Shown: piece after piece, positions 6,361 through 29,233 of the stretch
How positions within the stretch are numbered: the first letter of the stretch is position 1
How the letters are laid out: each line of letters opens with the position of its first letter
Assembly (NCBI GenBank): GCA_013152715.1
Contig: JAADFU010000180.1
Coordinates: 1,594 to 59,642, forward strand
Origin: Calditrichota bacterium
Lineage (GTDB): Bacteria; Zhuqueibacterota; Zhuqueibacteria; Thermofontimicrobiales; Thermofontimicrobiaceae
Direction: 5' to 3'
DNA: 58,049 nt
Program-made: the position numbers and the translations under genes
The notes under the pieces: model-generated
Database searches by the model: none
What the model saw: only the letters and a program-made list of their open reading frames with translations
Told to the model about the DNA's origin: nothing

Positions 6361-6364
6361 CTCA

Positions 6365-6778
6365 TCAATTATCTGCTGTCTTGCCGATTAAAAGCTGGCG
6401 AAATTTTTCATCCATGGGAATGGGCCTGCCCTGTTTGTTGATGAAAACGCCGCGCATTGTTGCGGAGAAAACTTTTTTCCCGGAAGCGGTGTTGAAAATT
6501 TCCTGTTTCAGCGTCATACTGGAGCGCTTCAGTTCGACTGTTTCCAGCGTCACATCCAATTCGTCACCCAAAAATGCCGGTGAAATGTATTTGGCGTGCA
6601 CTTCGGCGATGACGATATATTTCCCCTGATTCATAAAATAGCTGAATGGTAAATTGGCTTGTTCCATAAATTCCACGCGGCAATATTCGCAGTAATTCAA
6701 ATAAACGGCGTAATTGACATGTCCCTGGGAATCCAATTCGTAGGATCGTACTTTTAACCTGAGTGAAAATTTCTGCAT
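6365..6778 (-). CDS. Hotdog-fold acyl-CoA thioesterase (4HBT, YbgC/FadM-like)
   Basis: A 137-residue single-domain hotdog protein. The N-terminal segment YELDSQGHVNYAVYLNYCEYCR matches the 4-hydroxybenzoyl-CoA thioesterase pattern, in which an aspartate (here D16) before GHVNN-like residues is catalytic. It is likely to hydrolyse acyl-CoA or aryl-CoA thioesters in the cytoplasm; the acyl group cannot be predicted. ATG at 6778 is chosen over the TTG one codon upstream because GGAG lies at good distance. It sits between the SbcD-like gene and the GH10-like gene in a compact operon; the three functions have no obvious connection. Confidence 0.85.
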   Translation of the reverse strand: MQKFSLRLKVRSYELDSQGHVNYAVYLNYCEYCRVEFMEQANLPFSYFMNQGKYIVIAEVHAKYISPAFLGDELDVTLETVELKRSSMTLKQEIFNTASGKKVFSATMRGVFINKQGRPIPMDEKFRQLLIGKTADN

Positions 6779-6807
6779 CAATCTGTCTCCTTCAGCTTCA
6801 ACATTTA

Positions 6808-14260: not shown

Positions 14261-14301
14261 GCTGAAGGATTTCCCCCCTCTATATCAAGGAGAATGTAAC
14301 A

Positions 14302-14703
14302 ATGATGGTAGAAAAGAGAAAGAAGAAACCCACAGAGATTCCTTCTTCATCGTTGGCGGATATAGCATTTCTTTTGCTAATTTTCTTCCTGGTGACCACC
14401 ACCATCGATGTGGACAAAGGGATTGGTCTGGTTCTGCCGCCGAAAGGAGAAACAAAAGAGGTAAGCAAGAAAAACATCATCAGCCTGCTGGTGAATGCCG
14501 AGGGAAAAGTTATGCTCGGCGATCAGGTTGTGGATATTCCCATGATCAAAAGCATTATTCGGCGAAAACTGGCGGAGAATGATAAGTTGATCGTTTCGGT
14601 GAAAACGGACGCGAACACTAAATATCGCTATTACATCCAAGTACTGGATCAATTAAAACAGGCAAACGCAACGCGTATCTCAATAGCGGAACCAGAGCAG
14701 TAA
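14302..14703 (+). CDS. ExbD/TolR biopolymer transport protein (first copy)
   Basis: A 133-residue ExbD/TolR protein: short cytoplasmic N-terminus, a single transmembrane helix (about 18-38) with the conserved aspartate in SLADIAFLLLIFFLVTTTID, and a periplasmic domain ending SVKTDANTKYRYYIQVLDQLKQA. It rotates inside the ExbB pentamer and passes proton-motive energy to TonB. The start with AAGGAGA upstream is ATG 14302; ATG 14305 directly after is equally possible. Two ExbD copies in one operon are common in Bacteroidetes-related phyla. Confidence 0.92.
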   Translation: MMVEKRKKKPTEIPSSSLADIAFLLLIFFLVTTTIDVDKGIGLVLPPKGETKEVSKKNIISLLVNAEGKVMLGDQVVDIPMIKSIIRRKLAENDKLIVSVKTDANTKYRYYIQVLDQLKQANATRISIAEPEQ

Positions 14704-14760
14704 GTTTCTGGTTTAATAATTGAAGGAAGCTTTCAAAAAGCAATATTAGGAGATAAGGCC

Positions 14761-15183
14761 TTGAAGTTCAATAAAAAAAGTAAAGCGGAAGCTGGGATAC
14801 CAACAGCCTCAATGCCTGATATTATCTTTATGCTCCTCATCTTTTTCATGGTAACCACGGTATTCAAAGAGTTTCGTGGAATACCGGTTCGCTTGCCGGC
14901 GGCGCGGAAAATAGAAAAGCTGCCTGGCAAACGAAATGTCGCTTACATCTATGCAGACGATCGCGATCGGGTATCTATTGATGACAAATTTGTAGAAATT
15001 AGAGAAATTTCGCGCTTGATGTACGACAAGATGAGGGATGAGATTGCCCCTCTTCGTGTTGTTTCCATGAAAATTGATGAGCGTGCGAATATGGGGTTTG
15101 TAACAAAAATCCAAGAGGAGCTAAGGAAGGCAGGCGGCACCGCTCTTAATGTAAATTATTCAACAAAAACAGCAAGTAAGTAA
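14761..15183 (+). CDS. ExbD/TolR biopolymer transport protein (second copy)
   Basis: A 140-residue second ExbD with the same build: membrane aspartate in SMPDIIFMLLIFFMVTTVF and a periplasmic domain with VVSMKIDERANMGFVTKIQEELRKAG. The start is a TTG at 14761, supported by GGAGATAAG upstream; no ATG exists before the transmembrane helix. It probably forms a heterodimer with the first ExbD in the channel. Confidence 0.9.
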   Translation: MKFNKKSKAEAGIPTASMPDIIFMLLIFFMVTTVFKEFRGIPVRLPAARKIEKLPGKRNVAYIYADDRDRVSIDDKFVEIREISRLMYDKMRDEIAPLRVVSMKIDERANMGFVTKIQEELRKAGGTALNVNYSTKTASK

Positions 15184-15198
15184 AAGAGGTGAATTGTC

Positions 15199-15843
15199 AT
15201 GGCGTTTCATAAAAATCCCGCAGTGGATCTTAAGTTAAAATACAAAAGAACCATTGAATTCACCACGGTAATTTCCCTGCTGCTGTGCATTTTGATTTTT
15301 CAAGCGTTCAAAAAGTTTGAGCAGAAAAAGGTCATCAAAAATATCGAAATTCAGAAAATCGAAGTTGACCAGATTCCTCAGACAAAGCAGGAAAAATTGC
15401 CACCGCCGCCGTCACGTCCAGCGATTCCGATTGAGAGTGAGAGCGAGGATATTCCGGATGATGCAACCATCGACCAAACCGATATCAATTTTGACGAAGT
15501 TCCTCCGCCTCCGCCCGCGCCTCCGACAGATGATGATCAAATCGTCTTTGTTCCCTATGACGAAGCGCCGTCGCCAATTGGAGGGTTCGGGGCAATTCAG
15601 CGCAATCTGGAGTATCCTGAGATTGCCCGAAAAGCTGGAATTGAAGGCACGGTTATCGTTTACGCGCAAATTGACAGAACCGGCAAGGTAATCAGAACAA
15701 AAGTGGTCAAACCGCTGGGAAATAGCGGCTGTAACGAAGCTGCTGTAAAGGCGATTAAAGCAGTGAAATGGAAACCCGCTAAACAGCGCGACAAAGCGGT
15801 AACTGTCTGGGTGAGTGTACCGGTGAAATTCAAATTGAAATAA
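15199..15843 (+). CDS. TonB family energy transducer
   Basis: A 214-residue TonB: cytoplasmic N-terminus, one transmembrane helix (about 24-38), a proline-rich periplasmic spacer (PPPPSRPAIPIE, PPPPPAPPTDDD) and a TonB C-terminal domain (about 140-214: YPEIARKAGIEGTVIVYAQIDRTGKV, CNEAAVKAIKAVKWKPAKQRDKAV, VPVKFKLK). It transmits energy from ExbB/ExbD to outer-membrane receptors. AGAGGTGA precedes the start 15 bases after exbD2. It ends the operon at a clear terminator. No TonB-dependent receptor gene is in the window. Confidence 0.92.
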   Translation: MAFHKNPAVDLKLKYKRTIEFTTVISLLLCILIFQAFKKFEQKKVIKNIEIQKIEVDQIPQTKQEKLPPPPSRPAIPIESESEDIPDDATIDQTDINFDEVPPPPPAPPTDDDQIVFVPYDEAPSPIGGFGAIQRNLEYPEIARKAGIEGTVIVYAQIDRTGKVIRTKVVKPLGNSGCNEAAVKAIKAVKWKPAKQRDKAVTVWVSVPVKFKLK

Positions 15844-15871
15844 GAAGTATTTCTTGTTGGTAAAGTTTTGG

Positions 15872-15904
15872 GAGCGGTATATTTTCGAATGTACCGCTCT
15901 TTTC
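15872..15904 (+). terminator. Terminator of the TonB operon
   Basis: GAGCGGTA pairs with TACCGCTC around a 12-base loop, followed by TTTTC. The next gene begins just beyond it. Confidence 0.75.
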
Positions 15905-15918
15905 ATTTGTGGCTTGCT

Positions 15919-16440
15919 ATGAAAAAAATAAGCATTTACATTTTGTCGCTCGGTATTTTGTCTTTGTTGATGGGCTTTTGCGTCAATCCCTTTGCCCCCA
16001 AATTGGAAAAATCCGACCAGCAAGGCTTAATCATTACAGAGCAAAAAACGCCCGACGAAGTCCTGCAAAATTTCAAATACGCCTACGTTTTCAAAGATTC
16101 GGTGCTTTACGCGGATTTGCTGGATAGCTCTTTTGTTTTCATCTTTTTTGACCCTGAAGAACAATCCTCCGGCAGTTTCATGAGTTGGGGCAGAGATGTG
16201 GATTTGACGACAACAGGCCGTTTGTTCCGCAATTTCGATGTCATTGATTTAATCTGGAACTCCACAGTTTATTCCATCCTCGAAGAAGACAGGGCGGAAA
16301 TGTCCAAGAGCTTTCACCTCACGCTGAGCAAGGATAACGAATCAATCTCCGTCAGCGGCGACGCCATTTTCCTATTTGCCAAAAACCAATTCGACGGGAA
16401 ATGGCGCATTTTGCAGTGGAAAGACGAGTCAGATCTCTAA
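15919..16440 (+). CDS. Small putative lipoprotein, unknown function
   Basis: A 173-residue protein with a short basic start (MKKISIYI), a hydrophobic core and a cysteine at about residue 20 (LMGFCVNPFAPKLE), which looks like a lipoprotein signal even though phenylalanine before the cysteine is not canonical. The mature part is probably an NTF2-like small alpha/beta domain (TPDEVLQNFKYAYVFKDSVLYADLLDSSFVF at its start and a final GKWRILQWKDE strand), judged only by overall pattern. ATG 15919 is chosen over a longer frame starting inside the terminator hairpin. No ribosome binding site is obvious. It lies directly behind the TonB operon terminator. Confidence 0.7.
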   Translation: MKKISIYILSLGILSLLMGFCVNPFAPKLEKSDQQGLIITEQKTPDEVLQNFKYAYVFKDSVLYADLLDSSFVFIFFDPEEQSSGSFMSWGRDVDLTTTGRLFRNFDVIDLIWNSTVYSILEEDRAEMSKSFHLTLSKDNESISVSGDAIFLFAKNQFDGKWRILQWKDESDL

Positions 16441-16693: not shown

Positions 16694-18067
16694 TTAATTC
16701 AACTTCGCAAACTGAAACGGAAAAACAAAAGTCACATTTCCCGAGGCAATGGGTTTGAATTTGAGGCGTTTTACCAGAGAAAGAATCTCGCGCTCCATGG
16801 GCGCATAGTTCAGTGTCGATTCGATCACGCGGGCGGATATCACATGTCCGTTCGCGGCGATGGTGAATTCGATGGAGACTTTGCCGCGCAGCGTCGGTTT
16901 GATTTTCAAATATTTGTTGTAAATGTAAGTAATTTGCCCCTGCCGCGCATTGACGGTCTGGAACACGGATTCTTCAGAACGGTAGCCGAGTGCTTCGGCG
17001 CTTCCCTTCGTGGCGGTGGGCTTAACCAGATCGACGACAGTTCTCTTTTTCAATTTTAGATTGGGCATGGCCACCGTCTCGTCCATGGAGGACAGAATGT
17101 CATCGATGCCGCCAGTGCCGCCGGTACCGATTAATTGATCTAATGGGTCTTCAGCATCTTTGGTGTTGTTTTTGCCCACTTTCAAATTTGTGCCGCCGCC
17201 AAGTATGTTATTCAAATCAGCTACCAGACCCTTGTCGACTAAGGCGTCGATGATAGAACTCGATTTGCTTGCCGCGCCGGAACTGGTACTTCCGATGACT
17301 CCCAGCAAGCCTTTGGATGCCACGCGATTCCCGCGGCCTGAAGATCGTCTGTTTGATTTCCGTCCGCTTGCTTTGTTAGATTTATCGGATTTGCTGTCCT
17401 TGGATTTATCCTTGCTCTCAGAAGCCCCGGCGCCGGAGGCGCTATTGGCTGTTCCCTGATTTAAAATTTCTTCCGGCGGTTTAGGAATGAAGCGCGCCAG
17501 GCGTTCCGGTACTTTTTCAATGTCGATTTCTTTTTTGGGCGCCACCTGGTAATCTTTCAAAGCGTACATGACAAGAATGTTCAGCGTTAATAAAAATAAA
17601 AATATCGACTTAAATAAAAGGTCGGAACCCAGAGTATTGAGCGTCGCGCGCGTCCACGAGAAAACGGGCGATTTGAGCGGCATTGTTTGTCTTGGCTGGA
17701 CATATTGAAAAGAAAATTCAATTTTAGTGTCGCCAACCGTCACGTAGCCCTGCTTTTGCGGCGTTAATTTGATCAAATAGGAATCGCCGTGACGCGGCAA
17801 AATATCGTGGCGAATTAACTCGGTAATGTTCAACGAGGAGCTATTCAGCGAAATTTCGCCTTTGACGAACGGTTTGACGTTCAAAATGTAATAGCCGTTT
17901 TGCTGGTCAAACAATACATGTTGTTTAGGATATTCAGTGCCGTAGAGAATCAAATTGTTAGCGCCGCTCTGACCGACAGAGAATTGTTTACCTTTGGACA
18001 AGACATATTGCCTGGTCTGGTTGGAACGACTTATGTTTAAAACGAGATATTTATTTTTTCCTGCCAT
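16694..18067 (-). CDS. FHA-like / transmembrane / TonB-C fusion protein (AgmX/PglI, GltG-like)
   Basis: A 457-residue protein with an unusual build. Residues about 20-120 resemble a forkhead-associated fold (FSVGQ, PKQHVLF, RHGDSYLI, VGDTKIEF), but the phosphothreonine-contacting arginine and serine of canonical FHA (GR and SxxH) appear as GQ and PKQH, so phosphopeptide binding is doubtful. One transmembrane helix (about 153-170) follows, then a Ser/Lys/Gly-rich low-complexity periplasmic region (about 205-330), and a TonB-C-like terminal domain (about 370-457: GKVSIEFTIAANGHVISARVIEST, MEREILSLVKRLKFKPI) of the AgmX/PglI type. GltG and GltJ of the Myxococcus gliding machine have comparable layouts. 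It is the last gene of the eight-gene operon and should couple the ExbB/ExbD motor to periplasmic partners. Confidence 0.8.
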   Translation of the reverse strand: MAGKNKYLVLNISRSNQTRQYVLSKGKQFSVGQSGANNLILYGTEYPKQHVLFDQQNGYYILNVKPFVKGEISLNSSSLNITELIRHDILPRHGDSYLIKLTPQKQGYVTVGDTKIEFSFQYVQPRQTMPLKSPVFSWTRATLNTLGSDLLFKSIFLFLLTLNILVMYALKDYQVAPKKEIDIEKVPERLARFIPKPPEEILNQGTANSASGAGASESKDKSKDSKSDKSNKASGRKSNRRSSGRGNRVASKGLLGVIGSTSSGAASKSSSIIDALVDKGLVADLNNILGGGTNLKVGKNNTKDAEDPLDQLIGTGGTGGIDDILSSMDETVAMPNLKLKKRTVVDLVKPTATKGSAEALGYRSEESVFQTVNARQGQITYIYNKYLKIKPTLRGKVSIEFTIAANGHVISARVIESTLNYAPMEREILSLVKRLKFKPIASGNVTFVFPFQFAKLN

Positions 18068-18118
18068 TGAGTTCGAGTATTCGTTTTGAGTTTGATTGTT
18101 GTCTGCCTTTTGATCGTG

Positions 18119-18643
18119 TCACTCCGGCTTATTAACCGCTAGCATGATGTCATTGAAGCCGATTCTGCCGCACGTGTACATGATTTTTTTAATAATCAAA
18201 TACGGCAATTCCTTATCGGCCTGAATGGAGATTTTTCCGGTGAAGCCGATATCCGTGTGTATTTCGCCAATTTTCTCGCTGATGTGTCGTTTCATTTTCA
18301 GGTCATTGAGCAAAGCGGGAATGAGCAATTGATTCGATCGCATCACATCAGCCACTTTAGCAATGGACCGTCCGTCTAATAAAATCATTTCATTGGTGAC
18401 AACAATGATGGACGTTGTTTCCGGCGTTTTCTGCGCAGTGGAATTGGGCAGTTTCAAGTCCGGAGCGACAGACATGATCTGGCCTTCCGCAGAATAGCTT
18501 TTCAGTAGGAAAACCAGCAGAATGGTGAACATGTCGATCATCGACGTCAATTTTAAAGCAAAACTTGTTTGCCGTTTTTTGCGACGGCTGCTCACGACGT
18601 GAAATGTAAAATCGTTTGGCGTTTGTGGGAAACTTTTCATCAT
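18119..18643 (-). CDS. ExbD/TolR protein (envelope operon, second copy)
   Basis: A 174-residue ExbD/TolR with a longer basic N-terminus (SSRRKKRQTSFALK) than usual, a transmembrane helix with the membrane aspartate in LTSMIDMFTILLVFLL, and a periplasmic domain ending GKISIQADKELPYLIIKKIMYTCGRIGFNDIMLAVNK. It begins 26 bases after the preceding exbD; two consecutive ATGs are possible starts and no good ribosome binding site is seen, so coupling is likely. It pairs with the neighbouring ExbD inside the ExbB channel. Confidence 0.88.
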   Translation of the reverse strand: MMKSFPQTPNDFTFHVVSSRRKKRQTSFALKLTSMIDMFTILLVFLLKSYSAEGQIMSVAPDLKLPNSTAQKTPETTSIIVVTNEMILLDGRSIAKVADVMRSNQLLIPALLNDLKMKRHISEKIGEIHTDIGFTGKISIQADKELPYLIIKKIMYTCGRIGFNDIMLAVNKPE

Positions 18644-18669
18644 TTTTTATGACCATTCAAAATATTATT

Positions 18670-19128
18670 TTAACCTGAAAGAGAGACGTTCGGGAAGCCG
18701 GATTCGCGACAGCGATCCATGACCTGAACGATAATATCATATTTTACTCGCGCCGCCGGCGCAATGATGATGTCTTCGGCGTAAGAATATTTACTTTTGA
18801 TTTGTTTGAGTTGTTGAACCAATGGGGCATAATTATATTTATTTCCCACCCGGTTCACCGGATCAAATTTAAACCCCGGGCTTTTCAATTGAAAACCGGT
18901 TTCCTTGATCGCTAAAATAACAAGCACTAATTTTTTATTCTGCTGTACCTGTATTGTACGGTTCTTGCTCAGTGTCGGCAAAGAGAGCTCGATGACCGCA
19001 ATCCTCACAAATGCCGCCGTCAACAACAAGAAAGGAATCAATAGCAAAAAAATATTCATCACCGGGATAATGTTGACGTCTGAGTCTTCAGCGGTTCGAT
19101 CTCTCCCCAGGGATCTTTTCAGATTCAT
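18670..19128 (-). CDS. ExbD/TolR protein (envelope operon, first copy)
   Basis: A 152-residue ExbD/TolR: cytoplasmic N-terminus (SLGRDRTAEDSDVNIIPVMNIF), a transmembrane helix (about 24-44) and a periplasmic domain ending in DIIVQVMDRCRESGFPNVSLSG. The helix carries VNIIPVMNIFLLLIPFLLL: the usual membrane aspartate of ExbD/TolR appears replaced by asparagine (N28), suggesting that only one of the two ExbD-like subunits in this operon is protonatable. The start is two bases after the exbB stop, so the two are translationally coupled. Confidence 0.85.
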   Translation of the reverse strand: MNLKRSLGRDRTAEDSDVNIIPVMNIFLLLIPFLLLTAAFVRIAVIELSLPTLSKNRTIQVQQNKKLVLVILAIKETGFQLKSPGFKFDPVNRVGNKYNYAPLVQQLKQIKSKYSYAEDIIIAPAARVKYDIIVQVMDRCRESGFPNVSLSG

Positions 19129-19130
19129 GT

Positions 19131-19769
19131 TTATTTGCCTTTGCTATTATTTTTCAGTAAAATCAACTTGCTGTAAACGCGCGCCACGTTTTGATTGATT
19201 TCGTCGATCAGTTCGTTTGTTTTTTCCTGAATGACCGAATAGGCAATCATGCACGGGATGGCTGAAATTAACCCGAAAGCGGTGGTATTCATTGCCTGGG
19301 AGATACCGCCGGACAACAGAGTCGCTTTCATGGAAGCGTCTGCGGTTGCCACGGCTTCGAACGAGGTGATGAGACCGAAAATTGTACCTAACAATCCCAA
19401 TAGCGTGGAGACGTTAGCGATTGTCGCCAAGTACGGCGTGCGTTTTTCCAGCTTGGGAATTTCCGCCAGCGCTGCTAATTCCAGCGCATTTTGAATTTCC
19501 GCGGGACTTTTTCCGGCTTCCTCAAGTCCGGCGCGGAGTACTTTGGGCAGCGCCGCGTTGGAAATACTGCAAAATTCCACGGCGCTTCTGATGTTTTTTT
19601 GATGAATGAAATCGAGCAAGCGGTGCATGAATGCCGCCGTATCGATGCGATTTCTTCCCAGAATAAAAATGGTGCGTTCAACCATAATGGCGATACCCGT
19701 AATCAATACCAGCAGAATAACGTACATGAACGGGCCACCGGATCTGAAGGAACTAATGATGAAATCCAA
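19131..19769 (-). CDS. ExbB/TolQ/MotA proton-channel protein (envelope operon)
   Basis: A 212-residue TolQ/ExbB protein with three predicted membrane helices (about 14-32, 118-142, 160-182) and the family region TPYLATIANVSTLLGLLGTIFGLITSFEAVA followed by GGISQAMNTTAFGLISAIPCMIAYSV. It starts with TTG at 19769, supported by AGGAGG eight bases upstream; no ATG precedes the first helix. With the two downstream ExbD genes it forms a second proton-driven motor, separate from the TonB operon set on the opposite strand. Confidence 0.92.
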   Translation of the reverse strand: MDFIISSFRSGGPFMYVILLVLITGIAIMVERTIFILGRNRIDTAAFMHRLLDFIHQKNIRSAVEFCSISNAALPKVLRAGLEEAGKSPAEIQNALELAALAEIPKLEKRTPYLATIANVSTLLGLLGTIFGLITSFEAVATADASMKATLLSGGISQAMNTTAFGLISAIPCMIAYSVIQEKTNELIDEINQNVARVYSKLILLKNNSKGK

Positions 19770-19828
19770 TTCCGAAACCTCCTGTTAGAAATTTACCAAC
19801 TCCTGTTACGACTCAGATGGAAGTCTTT

Positions 19829-20230
19829 TTACCACTGAATGTAATCTTTATTTTTAAGCGCTGATTTTTTTCGCTGCTTCAGATTAGCCTTTTCCACATT
19901 GCGAAAAATCAAATCAAAAAACTGGCGGTCGATTTTTAATCCGTCGACTTTAGGGTCGCTACCAGGTACGATGAAGACAGCTTGTGGCTTGGCAATTGAG
20001 CCGTAAATAGTGAGCTGCTTCTGGATGAATTTTTTTACCTGCGTGCTGGTGATGGTGTTGCTGCCTTTTTTGTGATCCTGATTTTGCGTTTGAGGGTTGT
20101 GAGCAGCAAACTTTGCGCCAGATTTCGGTTTGCTCTTTGCCAATGTTGACGTGAAAATCCCTGAAAAGATGATGGCAATTACAATTGCGAAACAAAATGC
20201 TCTGAGAATAATCCGCTTTTGCATTTTCAT
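19829..20230 (-). CDS. Small exported basic protein, unknown function
   Basis: A 133-residue protein with an N-terminal signal peptide or anchor (about 5-30, ending near TLAKSKPKSG), a basic, glutamine/asparagine-rich linker (about 34-60), and a conserved-looking C-terminal part rich in lysine (TSTQVKKFIQKQL, DGLKIDRQFFDLIFRNVEKA). No family was recognised. The start overlaps the stop of the large TPR gene by four bases (ATGA), so it is translationally coupled and surely part of the operon; a periplasmic role in the envelope machine is inferred from context only. Confidence 0.65.
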   Translation of the reverse strand: MKMQKRIILRAFCFAIVIAIIFSGIFTSTLAKSKPKSGAKFAAHNPQTQNQDHKKGSNTITSTQVKKFIQKQLTIYGSIAKPQAVFIVPGSDPKVDGLKIDRQFFDLIFRNVEKANLKQRKKSALKNKDYIQW

Positions 20231-23190
20231 TGATCATTCCTCTTGATCTGGTTCGTTGGCACGATTCTTTTTTGGTTCGACTGTTGTGAAAGCGCGGAAC
20301 TTTTGGCCATGCCTAAAACGAGCGAAAGCTGCTCTATTCGCTGTTTGGTCTTTTTGACCCACTCGTTTTGAATGTTGTTTCTCGATGCGTTTGTCAAATT
20401 CGCTTTGTAAATATCCAGCGCCTTTTGTCTCGCGGCGGCGACTTGCTTATTGATGGCCTGGAGATAGACTTCCTTTTCCTGATCCCGGTACTCTTCGGGG
20501 ACAGGGGCGCTCTCAATTGCCTGGGCTAATTCCTCAAAAGTCATGCCGGTTTTGAACAGGGACGCCGTGGTCCATTCAGCGATTTGATATTTGCCGGCGT
20601 CCACATAATTTTTTAATACGGTTTGCAAAAGTGCGGTTTTGCGTTTCATGGTGATGTCGAGCGGCGGCGCAATTTTTATTTGTTTATATTTCCCAAAATT
20701 AATTTCACCGATTAAAAATTGTGCCTTTGCTGGTAAATAATCTTCCACGCTTTTCCGCCGTCGTTTGAATTCCTGAAATTTTTCGATGGTTGCCTGAAAT
20801 TCGTTCAATGCGTTTGAGAAATCATTTTGATTGTATGAAATTTCACCAATCTTGTACAACGCTTCTATTATTTGATCCGGATTGGCATCGGGAAAACGAC
20901 TGACAAATTGCCGATACGTATTTTTGGCCTTGAACCATAATTCCAATTGTTCATAGCAATTAGCTGCGGCTAACAGGGCGCGAGACGCAAATTGCGAAGT
21001 CGGACATTCGTCCACAACGCGCATGTATTTGTCCGCAGCGTGGACCCAATCCTGCTTTTTTTCGTAGAGCAGCGCCGCTTTCATCAGCAGTTCGTCTTTG
21101 AAACTCACGTTTGGCTGTTCTTCAAGCATGCGCTCATAGGCGCGAACTGCTTTTTGTATGTCTTCCGCTTGTTCAAATTGACCGCCGGCTTCAAAAATTG
21201 CAGCTTTGGCAATTTGCTCGTCTTTTTCGCTGAACGCTAATCTCAAAAATTCAACCGCAGCCCTGGTCGGCTTTCCTTGTTTTTTTAGATTCTCCGCGTG
21301 TTTGAATTTGGCTGACGCTACCAATTTTTTGGATTTTTTCACAAAATTTGCAGAGTCCGGAAACGCGTCGGCCAGATTGTTGAACCATTTCTCAGATTTT
21401 TTATAGTCTCCCATTTTTAGGTAGCATTGAGCGACCATCTTGATGCATTGCCCATAATAAGGAGAAGAACGATATTTGGGATCGACTGTTTTTTTGTACA
21501 GCTTGACTGCCAAATCCCAGCGATCTAAATTGTATAGCGTCTCTGCAAATTTGATCAGTACGTCCAGCAAGTGTTCGCTTTGCGGTTGTTGCCGCACAAA
21601 ATCGTTGCAGGCGCGAATCAGGTTAAATTGCGTCTCGGAGGCGACCTTAATGGGAATAATTGACTCCGTGCCGCCGCCGACAAAATCTTCAATGTACAAT
21701 GTGATGCTATCCGAACTGGCGGTTTGACGACTCAAAATTTCGTAATAGGCCAAAATCCGGTTAAAAGCGGCAGTTTCGCGAAATTCATTTTCGCCGTAAA
21801 TTGTCATTACTTTGTAATATTCATCCGCGGCTTTGTCAAATTCCTGGATCGCGTAATAACATTCCGCCAGATAAAAATTTACGCGTGACGCGCGTTTGTT
21901 CGTGCGGAATTTTTTCAGGTACTCCTCGTATTTGTCAATGGCTTTGCGGTATTCGCTGGCTTGATTTTTTTTCTGCGCTTTTGACTGAAACTCCGCGCCG
22001 AGAGAGTACAACATCTCCTCGGACATGTTTACGGCGTTTTCTCTGACTTTAGTCCCTTGATGTTTTTTGAGCCACTCGCTGTCGGGACCATATTTTTCGA
22101 CAAAGACATTTTTTGCCTCTGTCGCCTGATCTTCGTTCAAGTCGGCTTCGTAGCATTGGATGATCTCATTTTGAATGCTCGGCGCGTCCGGATAGAATGG
22201 GTACAAATTGAGCAATGTCTGATAAACGTGGATAGCGTCCTGATAAAAATTTCGCTGTTTGTAAATTTCTCCCATTTTGAGCAACACGTCCACGGCGTAG
22301 CTTTGTGTGTCATCTCTACTCAAAATTTCTTCCAACGATTGTGGGCCGCGGTATTCTGTGAGAGAATGTGCGATGTACTCGATAGCTTCATTGCGAACGT
22401 CGGCTTTGGTTTTGCCCAACAGTTTCGTGTTTAACTTTTCCAGCAGCGAAATATCGCTGATGAGATAGACGAACGAGCTGATGGCGCTGGTGAAATCATT
22501 AATATTGTAGTATGACCAACCTAATTTGTACAAAGAATAGTTAAAATATGGATCGTCCCACCGATCCAAAAGGCGTTTGTATTCGTCGATTGCTTTTCGA
22601 AATTGTCTTTTGCTGAAATAATATTCGCCGAGACGGAAATGCGCCTCTGAAATGCGCGGGCTTTCCGGCGTTTCAAACACCAATTTTTGCAAATAATCTT
22701 TGGCTTTTTCCTGATTCCCCTCGTCGAGGTGGGAAATTGCCAATCTGTACAGTATTTTGTCTTTGTAAGGCAGATTGGGGTATTTTTCTAATAATTGATA
22801 ACACAGGTCAATCGTTTTTTGCAAATTAACGCGCGGCAATATGGGCTCGGCAAAAATTTTCCCCTTTTCAAATTTCACAATGTCTTCGTCATATTTTTTC
22901 ATTTTTAGCCTGAAATCGTACTGAGCTTTGCTGGCGTACAATTCGGCCAATTCAAACATCAGATAGGGGATAAACGGCTGATTCGGATATTTGGCAATCA
23001 TTTGTTCGTGGTGCAAAATTGTCGCCTTAACACTATTGATATCAATGCTGTTCGTGGTGTCCGAGGCCACATATTTTATCGGGAGCTGATCAATATTGTC
23101 CGGGTTAAATTTGCTCTGCGCAATAGCAAAATGCGAAATGAAAACGGTTGCTATGGCTAAAAATGTGATGATATATAATTTGCCCTTCAT
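20227..23190 (-). CDS. Large periplasmic TPR protein
   Basis: A 987-residue exported protein: signal peptide (about 1-24, ending AIAQS), then almost entirely tetratricopeptide-like helical repeats. At least ten recognisable units show patterns such as AHFRLGEYYFSKRQFRKAIDEYKRLL, LYKLGWSYYNINDFTSAISSF, AAFNRILAYYE and ALLAAANCYEQLELWFKAKNTY; they resemble the outer-membrane assembly TPR families (BamD/YbgF-like). It probably acts as a periplasmic scaffold. In the Myxococcus Glt cluster large TPR proteins (AgmK and others) play such a part. It starts 18 bases after the stop of the preceding TPR gene and overlaps the next gene by four bases. Confidence 0.85.
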   Translation of the reverse strand: MKGKLYIITFLAIATVFISHFAIAQSKFNPDNIDQLPIKYVASDTTNSIDINSVKATILHHEQMIAKYPNQPFIPYLMFELAELYASKAQYDFRLKMKKYDEDIVKFEKGKIFAEPILPRVNLQKTIDLCYQLLEKYPNLPYKDKILYRLAISHLDEGNQEKAKDYLQKLVFETPESPRISEAHFRLGEYYFSKRQFRKAIDEYKRLLDRWDDPYFNYSLYKLGWSYYNINDFTSAISSFVYLISDISLLEKLNTKLLGKTKADVRNEAIEYIAHSLTEYRGPQSLEEILSRDDTQSYAVDVLLKMGEIYKQRNFYQDAIHVYQTLLNLYPFYPDAPSIQNEIIQCYEADLNEDQATEAKNVFVEKYGPDSEWLKKHQGTKVRENAVNMSEEMLYSLGAEFQSKAQKKNQASEYRKAIDKYEEYLKKFRTNKRASRVNFYLAECYYAIQEFDKAADEYYKVMTIYGENEFRETAAFNRILAYYEILSRQTASSDSITLYIEDFVGGGTESIIPIKVASETQFNLIRACNDFVRQQPQSEHLLDVLIKFAETLYNLDRWDLAVKLYKKTVDPKYRSSPYYGQCIKMVAQCYLKMGDYKKSEKWFNNLADAFPDSANFVKKSKKLVASAKFKHAENLKKQGKPTRAAVEFLRLAFSEKDEQIAKAAIFEAGGQFEQAEDIQKAVRAYERMLEEQPNVSFKDELLMKAALLYEKKQDWVHAADKYMRVVDECPTSQFASRALLAAANCYEQLELWFKAKNTYRQFVSRFPDANPDQIIEALYKIGEISYNQNDFSNALNEFQATIEKFQEFKRRRKSVEDYLPAKAQFLIGEINFGKYKQIKIAPPLDITMKRKTALLQTVLKNYVDAGKYQIAEWTTASLFKTGMTFEELAQAIESAPVPEEYRDQEKEVYLQAINKQVAAARQKALDIYKANLTNASRNNIQNEWVKKTKQRIEQLSLVLGMAKSSALSQQSNQKRIVPTNQIKRNDQ

Positions 23191-23208
23191 GGCTATTTCC
23201 CGCTTGTG

Positions 23209-24600
23209 TTATTTTCCTCTGCTTGTCCCTAATTCCTTTAAAAACAAAGCCCGTGAGACCCCGTATTCTGCATATCCCCGCCAGTCTTTTCTTCTTTCAC
23301 GGCGCTCCACGATTTTACTCATGTCAGCAATTTGCTCTTGCATGTAAACGAGCTGATCTTTTTCCGCTCGCAAATTTTCGATCATTTTTTCGCGCACTTC
23401 CTTTAAGCGCTTTTTTTCAGCGAGCAGATAGTCCGGGATTTTCTGCCCACGGCCGTTCAAAGGAATAGCGTCAAGCAACTTTGTTTCTTCAATGAGTATT
23501 TTTACTTTTAAATCCTCGATGTGCCCCTGCTGATTTTTTAAATGATAGTTGACCTTTTGTACGAGAACCGGTAGGTCTTGACGCTCCGGAAAAATTTCAA
23601 AGATGCGCCTGTAAGAAGCAATAGCTTCATCGTACCGGCCGAGTGCGATGTAAGATTGACCTAATAGGAAATAGGATTCTTCCGCATTCTCGCTGTCGGG
23701 GTATTTTTTGATTAACTTATTCAAAATATGAATCACTTTCTCGTATTCATTCAATTTTAAATAGGCCCAGCCAAGTCCTAATAACGCATCCTGATAATTT
23801 TCATGGTCCTCTGCGACTGCCGACAGTTGACCCGTCGCCGCGTCGTATGCCTGCAGTTCGTAGTAAATGAGACCGAGGGTCAATCTGGCGTTATCCACAA
23901 TTTCGCGGCGCTCCGGGCTGATTATCGGCAGTGATGTGATCTTGCGAAAATAATCCACCGAAGTAGCGACGTTCGATTTTTTCAAATAACACAACGCGGC
24001 AGTATAGAGCGCGCTGGCGTAATATTCGCTGCGGCCATCTATTTTTTTGAGCACGCCGATGGCCATGTTGTAATTTTTAAGATAGTAATGGCATTGCCCC
24101 GCGAGATAGCTGGCTTCATTTAAAATTTTTCGATCGCGGGTTTTTTTAATCAACGCGTAATATACCCGCAACGCTTGTTTGTATTTACTTTGAGAATAAT
24201 AATTATTTTCCAATCCCAACAGCGCTTCGGCGATCATCGGACTTCGGGGATACTTTTTAATCAGATAGCCGTACAGTCTGGTCGATCCGGCGAATAATTC
24301 TTCCTGAAACAAGCATTTGCCCAGATAAGTTATCACGCGATCCAGCTTGTTGAATTGCGGGTAAAAATCCATGATGATGACCAATTCCTGCGCGGCTCTC
24401 CAATATTCGCCTTGCTTGTACAGTTTGACGCCGTTGCGGAAAGTTTTATTCGCGGCGCGTTCCATTTCTTTGTCGTTGCCGTTTTGTGGAAAAGAGCTCT
24501 GGGCAGCGTTTCCCTCAGCGAGAATAGCCGGCGAACGGGTCACAGCAAAGATGACCGAGCTAAAAATAATGAGCAATAGTATTTTTGAAGGCTGTTTCAT
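23209..24600 (-). CDS. Periplasmic TPR protein, smaller
   Basis: A 463-residue exported protein with a signal peptide (about 1-28, ending ILAEGN) and TPR repeats over about 45-350 (KTFRNGVKLYKQGEYWRAAQELVIIMDFYP, AEALLGLENNYYSQSKYKQALRVYYAL, EESYFLLGQSYIALGRYDEAIASYRRIFEIFP). The C-terminal 110 residues form a charged helical, probably coiled-coil tail (LLAEKKRLKEVREKMIENLRAEKDQLVYMQEQIADMSKIVERRE). It is the second gene of the operon, 18 bases after the beta-barrel gene. A role as periplasmic linker between barrel and motor is inferred. Confidence 0.85.
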   Translation of the reverse strand: MKQPSKILLLIIFSSVIFAVTRSPAILAEGNAAQSSFPQNGNDKEMERAANKTFRNGVKLYKQGEYWRAAQELVIIMDFYPQFNKLDRVITYLGKCLFQEELFAGSTRLYGYLIKKYPRSPMIAEALLGLENNYYSQSKYKQALRVYYALIKKTRDRKILNEASYLAGQCHYYLKNYNMAIGVLKKIDGRSEYYASALYTAALCYLKKSNVATSVDYFRKITSLPIISPERREIVDNARLTLGLIYYELQAYDAATGQLSAVAEDHENYQDALLGLGWAYLKLNEYEKVIHILNKLIKKYPDSENAEESYFLLGQSYIALGRYDEAIASYRRIFEIFPERQDLPVLVQKVNYHLKNQQGHIEDLKVKILIEETKLLDAIPLNGRGQKIPDYLLAEKKRLKEVREKMIENLRAEKDQLVYMQEQIADMSKIVERRERRKDWRGYAEYGVSRALFLKELGTSRGK

Positions 24601-24618
24601 AAGCTAAAATTGATCGGT

Positions 24619-25638
24619 TTACTTTTTCTTTTTCTTGGCGCCGCCCTTTTCTTCGAGCGATTTTTTCATTCTTTCCAGGTCTTGTTTGACTTTCTGGCGT
24701 TTCTTCTTAATCGCTTCAAGCTTTCGCCGTTCTTCTTCCTCTTTCATGCGTTGAAACTTTGCGGATTTGTCAAAATATTTATAAACGGAAAAGCGATGAG
24801 TAATTCCCACGCGCACTTTCCATCGGTAGTATTCTTTGTGAAAAATATCCGTGTTTTTCAGAGAGTCGTATTGAGTCAATGCGATGTCGAAATTGACGTC
24901 GATGACATTGTTCCACGGGCCTAAAAATCGGAGTCCCTGCGTTATGCGAGAGGAGTTTTGATTGTATGGCAAATCTGGATTGTTGAAAAAGACTTCACTG
25001 CTATATTCGGTGAAAAATTGGAGCGAACGAATGGAAAATTTCAGACCGGCGCCAACGAACATTTGGTCGATCTGAGACGTGAAATAAGTGTCTGTCACGT
25101 CGTGATCCATGTAGCCGACATTCAAATTGATTTTTATCGGATGCCGCGGCATTACTTTGAGAAAATCAAAAGTCAGCAGCCCGGTGACTGTCCACGCTGC
25201 TTTGCCCGTGGAAAATGATTCGAAAGGAACATTGGGCGTGCCCGCAGTCGGAATTTTGAATGTTCCCGCCAGACCGAATCTGAAGAAATTTGTCCGTAAG
25301 GGAGTCAAATATTTGATTCCGATTTGGGTGTCGCCGCGCATTCCCCACAAATGTTCTTGATCGTCCTGATAGGGAATCACGTTGAGATAGGCTTCCAGAT
25401 AATGCGCCAGGCCGACAGTGACATTAAGGTTGGAGCGATAGTATTTTGCGAGGACTGTTTTGCTCGCCTGTTTCATGTAAGTGGAAATATTCCACTGAAC
25501 GATAATGTCAGCGGGTTTGATCGGGTCCGCCGATAGCACCCGCAGCATTCCTTTCCCCCCGGTGAGACCGATCTGGCTATGAACGGCAGAATTGAATCCG
25601 AGAAACAAAATCAGTAACAGCAGAGAGATTTTTCTCAT
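24619..25638 (-). CDS. Outer-membrane beta-barrel protein with charged C-terminal tail
   Basis: A 339-residue exported protein. A signal peptide (about 1-22, ending AVHSQ) is followed by roughly 270 residues of alternating beta-strand pattern typical of an outer-membrane barrel (VQWNISTYMKQASK, LNVTVGLAHYLEAYLNVIPY, FRFGLAGTFKIPTAG, IKINLNVGYMDHDV, LKFSIRSLQFFTEYSSEVFF, WKVRVGITHRFSVYKYF). Unusually, about 50 residues of very basic/acidic helix follow (KFQRMKEEEERRKLEAIKKK to a terminal KKKKK), which would lie in the periplasm and may bind partners or peptidoglycan. ATG 25638 is chosen over a start ten codons upstream because AAAGGTGG lies just before it. First gene of the operon. Confidence 0.8.
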   Translation of the reverse strand: MRKISLLLLILFLGFNSAVHSQIGLTGGKGMLRVLSADPIKPADIIVQWNISTYMKQASKTVLAKYYRSNLNVTVGLAHYLEAYLNVIPYQDDQEHLWGMRGDTQIGIKYLTPLRTNFFRFGLAGTFKIPTAGTPNVPFESFSTGKAAWTVTGLLTFDFLKVMPRHPIKINLNVGYMDHDVTDTYFTSQIDQMFVGAGLKFSIRSLQFFTEYSSEVFFNNPDLPYNQNSSRITQGLRFLGPWNNVIDVNFDIALTQYDSLKNTDIFHKEYYRWKVRVGITHRFSVYKYFDKSAKFQRMKEEEERRKLEAIKKKRQKVKQDLERMKKSLEEKGGAKKKKK

Positions 25639-25694
25639 TGCGGAACCACCTTTAGATTGTAATTTCATGCGATAACGTGTATTTTTCTCAACGG

Positions 25695-26342: not shown

Positions 26343-26933
26343 ATGAATCAAGGAATGAGTATGGATCAAAATGAAGTGTTGTTGATTCACCGCGCTCAGG
26401 AAGGTCACGTCCCATCTTTTGAACAACTGGTGCGGCTGTATGACGAAAATATTATGCAATTGCTTTGTCATTTGCTCAATGATATCGAGGATGCAAAGGA
26501 TGTGTATCAGGATGTTTTTTTTAAAGTGTACAAATCCATAAATTCATTTCGGTTTCGCAGCGAGTTTTACACCTGGCTCTATCGCATTGCCGTAAATACG
26601 GCGATAAATTTTCGGAATAAACGAAAGAAGATTTGGCAAATGGAAAGTGCGGAATATCTGGCAGCGAATGATTCGGGGTTTTCCGAACCCGAGGATTCCG
26701 GCGCCAATCCGGAAAGCCATTTATTAAATTCGGAACTGTCATTGAAAATCGCTGAAGCCATTGACAAGCTTTCGCCGAAACAGCGCGCTGTGTTCATTTT
26801 GCGTCATTATCAAGGAATGAAATTGGCGGAAATTGCCAATGTTTTAGAATCAAGCGAAGGAACGATAAAAAATTATCTATTTCGAGCCATGCAAAAGATG
26901 AAGCGAAATTTGCAAAAATATGAAGCCCAATAA
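26343..26933 (+). CDS. ECF RNA polymerase sigma factor
   Basis: A 196-residue ECF sigma factor with region 2 (about 20-90: FEQLVRLYDENIMQLLCHLLNDIEDAKDVYQDVFFKVYKSINSFRFRSEFYTWLYRIAVNTAINFRNK) and region 4 (about 135-190: AIDKLSPKQRAVFILRHYQGMKLAEIANVLESSEGTIKNYLFRAMQKMKRNL). It should direct RNA polymerase to a small regulon when released by the anti-sigma factor encoded 12 bases downstream. Starts at 26343, 26355 (ATG) and 26361 (ATG) are all possible; conservation begins later, so this is unsettled. The downstream genes suggest control of envelope functions. Confidence 0.9.
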   Translation: MNQGMSMDQNEVLLIHRAQEGHVPSFEQLVRLYDENIMQLLCHLLNDIEDAKDVYQDVFFKVYKSINSFRFRSEFYTWLYRIAVNTAINFRNKRKKIWQMESAEYLAANDSGFSEPEDSGANPESHLLNSELSLKIAEAIDKLSPKQRAVFILRHYQGMKLAEIANVLESSEGTIKNYLFRAMQKMKRNLQKYEAQ

Positions 26934-26945
26934 TCAGGAGAAAAA

Positions 26946-27911
26946 ATGGGTTGCGACAAAAAGTACAAAAAATGGATCTGGTTATCATTATACGATGAAC
27001 TGGAAGCCAGAGAGCAAGATGATTTGCAGAAGCACATCGATTCCTGTGACGAGTGTCGGCGCGAGAGAGAACTTGCCAGACAATTTTGCGAACAATTGAG
27101 CGGCAAAGAAGTGATTCGCGTTTCAGATGAGTTATTGCGCCAGAGCCGCGACGCGCTGTTTCATCGCGTTCGTATGGCGGCGCGCTATGGCGCCAGGCGC
27201 GAGTGGCTGGAACGATTGCGTCACATTGTGGTTTTGGATTTTCGCCCACAATGGCAAATGGCAATTGCGCTGGGATTGTTGGGCGTTGGAATTTTGCTTG
27301 GCGCGAAATTTTTTCGGCATCCGGCGCGTTTAAACCCGGCGCTACTGGAGCAAATTGCCCGGCAGGGGGAAGCGGTTCAACAAATTGAAAACGTGTCTTT
27401 TGACCAGCGGAAAAACCAGGTCGTGGTTCGCTATCAGACCGTTCAACGTCACAGCCTTCAGGGCAATCCGAACGATCCGCAGATTCAACGGCTACTTATC
27501 CAAACGTTGATTTCTGATTCCCGCCCCAATTTGCGGCTGAGGTCTGTCAACGCTTTGCAGGATACGAAATCATTTGATCAGCGTGTTTTGGACGCCCTGA
27601 TCGAAGTGTTGGAGAATGACGACAATTCCGGCGTTCGTTTGAAAGCGATCAAAATACTAAATTCAATTCCCTGGAGCGAATCGGTGCAAGTGGCGCTCAC
27701 AAGAGTTTTCATCAAGGTTTTGTTGCAGGAAAAGAATTCCGCCGTGCGCATTCAAGCAATCGACGGATTGGAGCGGATTCGACACAAAGACGCCGTGTCC
27801 GTTCTTCACAAGGCCGCGGAGAAGGACAGCAACGATTATGTGCGCAACAAGGCGGCTGTTTTGTTGGAAAGAATAAAAAATCCTGAAATCAGCGAATCAA
27901 ACAATCAATAG
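26946..27911 (+). CDS. Transmembrane anti-sigma factor with C-terminal HEAT repeats
   Basis: A 321-residue protein with three parts. The N-terminus is a zinc-finger anti-sigma domain (zf-HC2 type): C3 and the HIDSCDEC motif near 33-40 supply the H-x3-C-x2-C ligands. A transmembrane helix (about 100-120) follows. The outer part ends in HEAT-like alpha repeats (about 175-315: VRLKAIKILNSI, VRIQAIDGLERIRHKDAVSVLHKAAEKDSNDYVRNKAAVLLERI). HEAT repeats on the extracytoplasmic side of an anti-sigma factor are unusual and may form the sensor for protein partners. AGGAG precedes ATG 26946; the gene is co-transcribed with the sigma factor and the DUF4097 gene. Confidence 0.82.
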   Translation: MGCDKKYKKWIWLSLYDELEAREQDDLQKHIDSCDECRRERELARQFCEQLSGKEVIRVSDELLRQSRDALFHRVRMAARYGARREWLERLRHIVVLDFRPQWQMAIALGLLGVGILLGAKFFRHPARLNPALLEQIARQGEAVQQIENVSFDQRKNQVVVRYQTVQRHSLQGNPNDPQIQRLLIQTLISDSRPNLRLRSVNALQDTKSFDQRVLDALIEVLENDDNSGVRLKAIKILNSIPWSESVQVALTRVFIKVLLQEKNSAVRIQAIDGLERIRHKDAVSVLHKAAEKDSNDYVRNKAAVLLERIKNPEISESNNQ

Positions 27912-27919
27912 GAGGCGAC

Positions 27920-29233
27920 ATGTTAAAAGCGAAAAGGTATGCAGCGCTCACGGTAATTTTCATCATTTTTCTGCTGATGTCAACCATGGCCTGGGCTCAG
28001 CAATTGCGGAAGCAAGGTCGTTATTACGTGGCTGACATTGAAAAAGAATTCAAAGTCAAGCCCGGCGGCTCACTGGAAATTAAAAACGTTCGCGGCGATG
28101 TGCAGATCACCAGTTGGAGCAAAAATGTGGTTTACATCCATGAGCGCCGAAAAATGGATGTTTTCACCAAAGCGGAAGCGGAAGCTGTGCTCAAAGACCT
28201 CAAATCTCAGTACCAGCAAGTCGGCGATAAAATCATTGTCGGCATGGAGGGCAGCTACCGTTCCTACATGAGCAGCTACTTTGACGTCAAATTACCGCAA
28301 AAATTTAACGCGCAGGTCAGTACTGCGGGAGGCGACCTTTCCGTTTCCGATTTGATCGGAGATGTCAAATTAGCGACTTCCGGCGGTGACATTGACGTTA
28401 CGGGCATCGACGGCATCGTAAACGCGACGACCTCCGGGGGCGATATTTCAGCAAAAAGAATAGGCCAACAGGTAACGCTCGCGACTTCCGGTGGTGATAT
28501 CGATCTGGAAGAAATCAAGGGGGACGTCAAGGCGGCTACTTCTGGCGGAGATCTCTCACTACGGGAGATTGACGGAAACGTGCGGGCATCTACGTCGGGC
28601 GGGGACATCATTGTGGAAAAAAATACTGCCAATGTTTCGGTGCAAACGTCGGGCGGAGACATTGAACTGTACGACATCGGCGCGGAAGTCAGAGCGTCAA
28701 CTTCTGGCGGAGATATCGTTGTTCGCCGCAGCAATGGCACAGTAAAAGTTTCTACCTCTGGCGGAGATATCGAGTTGACTGACATCAGAGGAAAAATAAC
28801 CGCTACCACATCGGGCGGGGACATTAAAGCGACGACAGTCATGGACGGCATCAAAGTCTCCACTTCCGGTGGCGATGTGGATTTGTTTGATATTCGCGGA
28901 TTCATCGACGCTTCGACGTCCGGCGGCGACATGCGCGCAGAAATGACGCTCAAAGATTTTAGCAAAGATCATCATATCAGCATGAAAACTTCCGGCGGAG
29001 AAATAGAGCTGAAAATTCCGGAGAAGTTACCGGCGACAATTAAAGCCCGCTTGAAAATCACGCCGCGCGCGCGCGATGATTACGGCATCATTTCGGATTT
29101 TCCCATTTCCATCAAAAAGGAAAAAGAAGGAAGAAACGAGATTATTACAGCGACCGGAGAAATCAACGGCGGCGGCGACGTAATTGAATTGAAGACAACT
29201 AACGGAAATATTTCGATTTTGAAATTGAAATAA
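27920..29233 (+). CDS. DUF4097 beta-repeat exported protein (18-residue TSGGD repeats)
   Basis: A 437-residue exported protein: signal peptide (about 1-28, ending TMAWAQQ), an N-terminal strand region (GGSLEIKNVRGDVQITSW, as in DUF4097), and then eleven consecutive 18-residue units each starting T-[SA]-G-G-D-[ILV] over about 135-345, followed by a 24-residue unit and a last TSGGE. The exact period suggests a right-handed beta-helix-like solenoid. Codons for the repeated residues differ between units, so repeat identity is held by selection on protein rather than recent duplication. It lies nine bases after the anti-sigma gene with AGGAGG upstream, and ends at a UUCG-loop terminator. DUF4097 proteins are often envelope-stress linked; a surface or periplasmic role is inferred. 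Confidence 0.85.
   Translation: MLKAKRYAALTVIFIIFLLMSTMAWAQQLRKQGRYYVADIEKEFKVKPGGSLEIKNVRGDVQITSWSKNVVYIHERRKMDVFTKAEAEAVLKDLKSQYQQVGDKIIVGMEGSYRSYMSSYFDVKLPQKFNAQVSTAGGDLSVSDLIGDVKLATSGGDIDVTGIDGIVNATTSGGDISAKRIGQQVTLATSGGDIDLEEIKGDVKAATSGGDLSLREIDGNVRASTSGGDIIVEKNTANVSVQTSGGDIELYDIGAEVRASTSGGDIVVRRSNGTVKVSTSGGDIELTDIRGKITATTSGGDIKATTVMDGIKVSTSGGDVDLFDIRGFIDASTSGGDMRAEMTLKDFSKDHHISMKTSGGEIELKIPEKLPATIKARLKITPRARDDYGIISDFPISIKKEKEGRNEIITATGEINGGGDVIELKTTNGNISILKLK
28322..29015 (+). repeat. 54-bp coding tandem repeat in DUF4097 gene
   Basis: Eleven in-frame 54-base units encode an 18-residue repeat beginning T-S-G-G-D. DNA identity is limited mainly to the ACN-TCN-GGN-GGN-GAY core, with synonymous positions varied. 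Confidence 0.9.

What the first reader, a model, noticed from the sequence alone, without database searches (positions are those of the whole stretch)
16694..25638. Eight-gene envelope machine resembling the Agl-Glt (gliding) or Nfs apparatus
One leftward operon with tight spacing or overlaps encodes, in order, an outer-membrane beta-barrel with a charged tail, two periplasmic TPR proteins, a small exported protein, a TolQ/ExbB channel, two TolR/ExbD subunits and an FHA-like/TM/TonB-C fusion. Seen directly: the motifs, signal peptides and gene order. Known: in Myxococcus, AglR/AglQ/AglS (one TolQ and two TolR) drive Glt proteins that include TPR proteins, barrels and the FHA/TonB-type proteins GltG and GltJ; a paralogous Nfs set assembles spore coat. 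Inference: this operon is a complete, compact trans-envelope motor in a lineage outside the Myxococcota, moving or assembling something at the surface. It includes at least one protein (133 residues) with no recognised family.
Basis: partly seen in the sequence, partly recalled or inferred. Interest (0 to 1): 0.8.

Follow-up and report, generated by a model that had tools for sequence, protein, structure and literature searches.

The report
Glt-type envelope motor missing an aspartate
This is an eight-gene proton-powered machine that spans the bacterial cell envelope, related to the core of the Myxococcus gliding and spore-coat machinery, kept in most members of the KSB1/Calditrichota group, and built with one of its two proton-carrying subunits naturally changed at the very residue whose mutation stops the Myxococcus motor.

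Summary
The operon is real: barrel, two TPR proteins, small protein, TolQ, TolR, TolR, FHA-TM-TonB_C. All eight genes keep the same order and strand across the KSB1/Calditrichota phylum. Sequence tests identify GltC, GltD, GltG and an AglR/Q/S-type motor. The 133-aa "orphan" is a GltF-family protein. So this is the stand-alone Glt "core complex" of Luciano et al. 2011 in a new phylum, lacking GltE and adding a 12-stranded barrel. A paralogous second operon lies elsewhere in the genome.

It is not an Agl-Glt gliding motor. The first ExbD subunit has Asn25 where M. xanthus AglQ has essential Asp28, with Pro seven residues on. Among 120 TolQ-TolR-TolR clusters, all 89 Asn/Ser forms have that Pro and none of 31 Asp forms do; the second subunit keeps Asp in 120 of 120. 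A natural D28N-like motor in several phyla suggests a heterodimeric axle with one proton site. I found no earlier report in the papers searched. GltJ and MglA were not found; no TolB or Pal is adjacent. Most likely role: inner-to-outer membrane force transduction for envelope assembly or maintenance. Function is inferred, not shown.

The parts
24619..25668 (-). Outer-membrane 12-strand beta-barrel with ~48-residue charged C-terminal (periplasmic) helix; likely start ATG at 25638 with signal peptide
   Evidence: AlphaFold pLDDT 85, 12 strands + helix 301-348; Foldseek OM barrels FapF/NanC/OmpG; family found in KSB1/Calditrichota and Fermentibacterota only
23209..24600 (-). GltC-like exported TPR protein (463 aa)
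   Evidence: NCBIfam GltC 26.9 bits E 1.9e-6 (far below cut-off 450); family HMM hits Myxococcus GltC E 9e-10; position between barrel and GltD
20227..23190 (-). GltD-like exported TPR protein (987 aa)
   Evidence: family HMM hits Myxococcus GltD E 3e-99; syntenic in relatives
19829..20230 (-). GltF-family small exported protein (133 aa), previously unrecognised
   Evidence: iterated HMM: 117 of 8784 ORFs hit, 115 beside GltD/TolQ/GltG by the test used; includes Myxococcus GltF E 9e-14 and its Nfs-locus counterpart
19131..19769 (-). AglR/TolQ/ExbB-type channel subunit (212 aa); channel Thr129 and Thr162/163
   Evidence: Pfam MotA_ExbB 1.9e-30; Thr129 and Thr163 invariant in 121 sequences
18670..19128 (-). 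TolR1/AglQ-position ExbD subunit (152 aa) with Asn25 in place of the proton-carrying Asp
   Evidence: Pfam ExbD 7e-20
19054..19056 (-). Codon AAT = Asn25 of TolR1, homologous to AglQ Asp28
   Evidence: alignment
19033..19035 (-). Codon CCT = Pro32 of TolR1, always present with Asn/Ser25
   Evidence: 89 of 89 against 0 of 31 in Asp forms
18119..18643 (-). TolR2/AglS-position ExbD subunit (174 aa) with intact Asp37
   Evidence: Pfam ExbD 1.2e-14; Asp in 120 of 120
18533..18535 (-). Codon GAC = Asp37 of TolR2, the only proton-site Asp of the two ExbD subunits
16694..18067 (-). GltG-like force transducer: degenerate FHA-like domain (7-121), TM (150-169), disordered linker (~190-340), TonB_C/AgmX-PglI domain (364-453)
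   Evidence: NCBIfam GltG 107.7 bits over residues 20-454; NF033768 79.8 bits; AlphaFold and Foldseek

Best explanation
The operon encodes a stand-alone Glt 'core complex'. In the inner membrane a TolQ/AglR-type ring surrounds a TolR1:TolR2 heterodimer; only TolR2 carries the proton-binding Asp, while TolR1 (Asn25, Pro32) is a structural, catalytically silent partner. Proton flow moves the motor, which acts on GltG (degenerate FHA domain inside the cell, one TM helix, long flexible linker, TonB_C domain). GltG's TonB_C reaches through the peptidoglycan and engages the periplasmic GltF/GltC/GltD proteins and, through them, the outer-membrane barrel. The output is mechanical work on the outer membrane (envelope maintenance, or export/placement of a surface polymer), not Myxococcus-type gliding. 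Shown by sequence: the genes, homologies, gene order, Asn/Asp pattern and predicted folds. Inferred: heterodimer, proton path, GltG-GltF contact, function.
For: Homology: GltG NCBIfam E 6e-31 across residues 20-454; GltD E 3e-99 and GltC E 9e-10 against Myxococcus; GltF by iterated HMM. Same order GltC-GltD-(GltE)-GltF-TolQ-TolR-TolR-GltG in Gammaproteobacteria, Nitrospirota, Nitrospinota, Myxococcota and Fermentibacterota. Conservation: TolQ matched in 81 of 82 and GltG-like in 79 of 82 genomes of the phylum (these totals include the paralogous operon), and the eight-gene order in examined genomes of many families. Motor: Asn in 32 of 32 operon-A and 16 of 16 operon-B sequences, confirmed in an overlapping sample of 49 A and 19 B genomes; 38 Asn and 3 Ser in other core operons; 31 Asp only in Myxococcota M1/M2-type, Bdellovibrionota and Coatesbacteria/Zixibacteria loci; TolR2 Asp in 120 of 120. 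Of 525 alignment columns only Asn25 and Pro32 separate the two types perfectly. Asp forms are not one clade (AU p = 3e-5). AglQ Asp is residue 28, whose D28N abolishes proton conductance, gliding and sporulation (PMC3858216). GltG/GltJ as TolA/TonB-like and possible TonB boxes in GltA/B: PMC5349195; GltF likened to a TonB box: PMC9389320.
Against: No experiment exists. Heterodimer formation is inferred from three genes kept together; TolR2 homodimers with TolR1 doing something else are not excluded. The barrel has no detectable sequence link to GltA/GltB/GltH. Five relatives (family f10) keep barrel-GltC-GltD-GltF-GltG but lack exactly the motor trio; three of them have no operon-A or operon-B type TolQ in the assembly, so there the transducer must work with another motor or without one, or the motor lies in unassembled sequence.
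Confidence: 0.6

Rival explanations
1. It is an Agl-Glt gliding machine: the motor tracks along the cell and pushes surface adhesins, as in Myxococcus.
For: Homologous GltC, GltD, GltF, GltG and AglR/Q/S-type genes.
Against: AglQ-position Asp is Asn, the change that paralyses Myxococcus gliding (PMC3858216). No GltE gene in the operon; GltJ only as its shared C-terminal domain in own genome and relatives; the Arf-family search finds only weak hits in ORFs that look like other GTPases, no clear MglA; kept in most of the phylum. The Caldithrix abyssi genome paper reports flagellar and type IV pilus genes but no Bacteroidetes-type gliding machinery (PMC5317091).
Confidence: 0.1
2. Nfs-like role: the machine moves or places a surface polysaccharide or coat after export.
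For: Nfs is a paralogous set driven by the same motor in Myxococcus (PMC3858216); the closest solved folds to the barrel include the FapF amyloid exporter and sugar/general porins.
Against: No glycan synthesis or export genes in the operon or among the neighbours examined; fold similarity of barrels is weak evidence.
Confidence: 0.25
3. [quoted passage not shown]
For: TolB passes its cut-off in only 22 of 81 genomes of the phylum and not in the window's genome, while at least one Glt-type operon is nearly universal.
Against: Marine Gammaproteobacteria carry the core operon and, from general knowledge, also have Tol-Pal; operon presence does not clearly track TolB absence; TolB could be diverged beyond the model.
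Confidence: 0.3
4. TolR1 is not part of the axle: TolR2 forms a normal two-Asp homodimer and TolR1 is a separate peptidoglycan anchor or inhibitor.
For: Only TolR2 keeps Asp; whether AglQ and AglS form hetero- or homodimers is not known (PMC9389320).
Against: TolR1 matches the full ExbD domain and is retained with TolQ and TolR2 in the clusters examined; near-invariant Asn and invariant Pro inside the membrane segment suggest packing within the channel.
Confidence: 0.25

Closest known systems
Agl-Glt/Nfs 'core complex' (Group B genes of Luciano et al. 2011, PMC3169522)
   Same: GltC, GltD, GltG and AglR/Q/S homologues in one cluster; same gene order as gammaproteobacterial operons
   Different: GltE absent; an OM barrel added; GltG keeps an FHA-like domain; GltF found to be part of the core rather than restricted to Myxococcales and Bdellovibrionales; a phylum-wide operon plus a paralogue in KSB1/Calditrichota
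Myxococcus xanthus Agl-Glt gliding machinery
   Same: Homologous GltC, GltD, GltF, GltG and TolQ/TolR/TolR motor
   Different: Asn instead of AglQ Asp28; no GltE; no full GltJ found; GltI, GltK and GltH not seen in the operon; GltG matches only the profile from residue 217 on, without the first FHA domain
Myxococcus Nfs spore-coat machinery
   Same: GltC/D/F/G-like paralogues in one locus (L261)
   Different: Nfs borrows the AglRQS motor; this operon carries its own and has a different barrel
Tol-Pal and Ton systems
   Same: Same motor superfamily, TolA/TonB-like transducer with TonB_C domain
   Different: No TolB, Pal or TonB-dependent receptor in the operon; two unequal ExbD subunits; large TPR proteins

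Membership tests
Glt core complex (Luciano 2011) | GltC, GltD, GltG and TolQ-TolR-TolR in one cluster | tested here: met
   the GltC link is the weakest (E 9e-10, TPR protein)
Glt core complex (Luciano 2011) | GltE lipoprotein in the cluster | tested here: not met
   GltD and GltF genes overlap by 4 bp in the window, so no ORF lies between them; the GltE model hits the Myxococcota equivalent in L116 (E 2e-23)
M. xanthus Agl-Glt gliding machinery | Both ExbD-type subunits carry the proton Asp (AglQ D28) | tested here: not met
   Asn25 in TolR1; Myxococcus AglQ Asp at 28
M. xanthus Agl-Glt gliding machinery | GltG equivalog | tested here: not met
   107.7 bits against cut-off 650; homologous over 20-454 only
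M. xanthus Agl-Glt gliding machinery | GltF | tested here: met
M. xanthus Agl-Glt gliding machinery | GltA/GltB/GltH/GltK outer-membrane proteins | tested here: inconclusive
   barrel in the same place as GltA/B beside GltC, but no sequence link
M. xanthus Agl-Glt gliding machinery | GltJ and MglA | tested here: not met
   GltJ: only the shared C-terminal domain, none over cut-off in 21 genomes; MglA: five weak Arf-family hits, none a clear MglA (own genome only)
Nfs spore-coat machinery | Exopolysaccharide coat substrate and sporulation | not testable with these tools
   needs a cultured strain
Tol-Pal | TolB and Pal encoded alongside | tested here: not met
   none in the flanks examined; own genome best TolB score 135 of 343 bits
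Bam complex | BamA (POTRA + 16-strand barrel) | tested here: not met
   12-strand barrel without POTRA

The most novel reading that the evidence does not exclude
Core-type Glt motors are a natural one-Asp class of proton motor: an obligate TolR1:TolR2 heterodimer in which one subunit is permanently inactive (Asn/Ser plus a helix-breaking Pro), so that the axle has one proton-binding site instead of two; the two-Asp Agl motors used for gliding and sporulation arose from, or alternate with, this state more than once.
Probability: 0.45. Interest if true: 0.8.

Novelty: new variant of a known kind. Interest (0 to 1): 0.62.

Why it matters
The Asp in ExbD/TolR/MotB subunits is treated as indispensable, and in M. 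xanthus the same Asp-to-Asn change in AglQ stops both gliding and sporulation. A large set of conserved operons, including ones in cultured Marinobacter, Alteromonas and Gilvimarinus (Ser in Microbulbifer), that carry this change naturally makes two open questions directly testable: whether these motors use ExbD heterodimers, and whether one proton site is enough. It also shows the Glt core, including GltF, to be a widespread envelope machine rather than a myxobacterial speciality, with an unknown function that can be probed in tractable strains.

Tried and rejected
Tol-Pal or Bam identity: rejected. Recent horizontal acquisition: the operon-A motors of the phylum form one supported clade in which the window sits with its family, so treated as vertical. 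Barrel as GltA/B homologue: five HMM iterations reached only Fermentibacterota. Plasmid collection search for GltG: no match. PDB sequence search for GltG: only weak TonB hits. Single origin of the Asp forms: rejected by AU test, but only 3-4 independent switches exist, too few for a significant sign test of the Asn-Pro pairing (p 0.25). Literature: ten searches found no report of an Asn-bearing ExbD partner (among them); most subscription papers are not covered. Promoter/terminator scan: 35 promoter-like sites against 17.7 expected, not used as evidence.

Full report
OBSERVATION. The eight minus-strand genes at 16694-25668 are as described, with gaps of 2-59 bp and one 4-bp overlap. Pfam and NCBIfam confirm TolQ, two ExbD/TolR, TPR proteins and a TonB_C/AgmX-PglI C-terminus. 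Structure predictions give a 12-strand barrel ending in a long charged helix and an FHA-like sandwich, TM helix, disordered linker and TonB_C domain for the last gene; Foldseek against the PDB returns FHA domains, TonB CTDs and outer-membrane barrels. The FHA domain looks degenerate: the Arg that normally follows the conserved Gly is Gln in the window, and the usual Ser is replaced by Pro-Lys (the canonical motif is from general knowledge).

WHERE IT IS. The window lies in a 97.9% complete genome. The nearest named records are candidate division KSB1 and Calditrichota. TolQ matched in 81 of 82 and the GltG-like protein in 79 of 82 genomes of the phylum; these totals include a paralogous operon, and by E-value and position the window's own operon type is present in most of the class. 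tblastn of all eight proteins against 19 loci from many families shows the same order and strand, apart from genes cut by contig ends or single missed hits. The genome carries a second operon, B (L067), with TPR 993 - TPR 1553 - small 138 - TolQ - TolR - TolR - GltG-like without FHA, in the same order.

WHAT THE GENES ARE. One scan of bacterial genome contigs with a TolQ alignment returned 80 loci, among them Myxococcota, Bdellovibrionota, Gammaproteobacteria, Nitrospirota, Nitrospinota, Fermentibacterota, Coatesbacteria, Zixibacteria and Gemmatimonadota. HMMs built from the KSB1 proteins find the same neighbours in the same order in most non-Bdellovibrio cases. Myxococcus-type reference loci were taken from a genome whose AglR/Q/S lengths (245/162/194) match the published M. 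xanthus values. TPR-long is GltD (E 3e-99); TPR-short is probably GltC (E 9e-10 plus NCBIfam GltC 27 bits; weaker because TPR repeats cross-match); the last gene is GltG-like (E 6e-31, residues 20-454, below the equivalog cut-off). GltE, present in a Myxococcota core operon and more weakly in a gammaproteobacterial one, is missing. The 133-aa protein belongs to the GltF family: an iterated profile gathered 117 of 8784 ORFs, 115 of them beside GltD, TolQ or GltG on the same strand (one of the other two overlaps GltG slightly more than the test allowed), including Myxococcus GltF and its Nfs-locus counterpart. Luciano et al. had GltF restricted to Myxococcales and Bdellovibrionales, so this extends the core.

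THE MOTOR. Aligned with AglQ, the first ExbD (TolR1) has Asn25 at the place of AglQ Asp28, the residue whose D28N substitution abolishes proton conductance, gliding and sporulation in M. xanthus (PMC3858216). Over 120 clusters: 32 of 32 operon-A, 16 of 16 operon-B and 38 other core operons have Asn, 3 have Ser; 31 have Asp, all in Myxococcota M1/M2-type, Bdellovibrionota or Coatesbacteria/Zixibacteria loci. The second ExbD has Asp in 120 of 120. A further partly overlapping sample of 49 operon-A and 19 operon-B genomes gives Asn in all first subunits and Asp in all second subunits. Every Asn/Ser form has Pro seven residues later and no Asp form does; these are the only two of 525 columns that separate the types perfectly. 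Two channel threonines of TolQ are kept, Thr129 and Thr163 in 121 of 121. The tree places KSB1 operon A and operon B as two supported clades, and Asp forms as a single clade are rejected (AU p 3e-5); at least three switches are needed, and the direction of change is not settled. The generic ExbB-ExbD-ExbD-TonB operon next door in the window keeps Asp in both ExbDs.

SEPARABILITY. Five genomes of family f10 keep barrel-GltC-GltD-GltF-GltG with only the motor trio missing from the operon (L226, L282-L285). Two of them retain the operon-B motor; in three neither was found. Motor and transducer can therefore be uncoupled genetically, as in Myxococcus where AglRQS serves both Glt and Nfs.

FUNCTION. 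The most likely role is inner-to-outer membrane force transduction for envelope maintenance or polymer placement. Against gliding: the Asn, missing GltE, no GltJ beyond its shared C-terminal domain, no clear MglA. A possible Tol-Pal stand-in is worth testing: TolB passes its cut-off in only 22 of 81 genomes and not in this one. No functional experiment on a core-type operon outside Myxococcus was found in the papers read; Luciano et al. call its function unknown, and PMC9389320 states that hetero- or homodimerisation of AglQ and AglS is not known.

LIMITS. Most outgroup loci are MAG contigs. Homology of GltC rests on modest scores. The heterodimer and the GltG-GltF contact are inferences.

Noticed in passing
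window 13646-16440 (+): Separate ExbB-ExbD-ExbD-TonB operon plus a 190-aa ORF, convergent with the Glt-type operon and conserved beside it in families f1 and f3; both ExbDs keep Asp.
   Followed up: partly
window 26343-29233 (+): Divergent ECF sigma factor, zf-HC2/HEAT anti-sigma and a repeat-rich (TSGGDI) exported protein upstream of the operon; the same trio lies near the operon in L068 and L081.
   Followed up: partly
L226, L282-L285: Family f10 operons keep barrel-GltC-GltD-GltF-GltG but lack exactly the TolQ-TolR-TolR genes.
   Followed up: partly
phylum-wide: TolB over cut-off in only 22 of 81 genomes of the phylum; the window genome has none.
   Followed up: partly
L144 11799-14599, L145 6835-8283 and on: Coatesbacteria and Zixibacteria core operons carry two GltG-like proteins, the second (L144) with an N-terminal GYF-like domain resembling GltJ.
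   Followed up: no
L289 (G081) 5204-7798: A second TolQ-TolR-GltG-like set lies directly downstream of operon A, a possible tandem paralogue motor.
   Followed up: no
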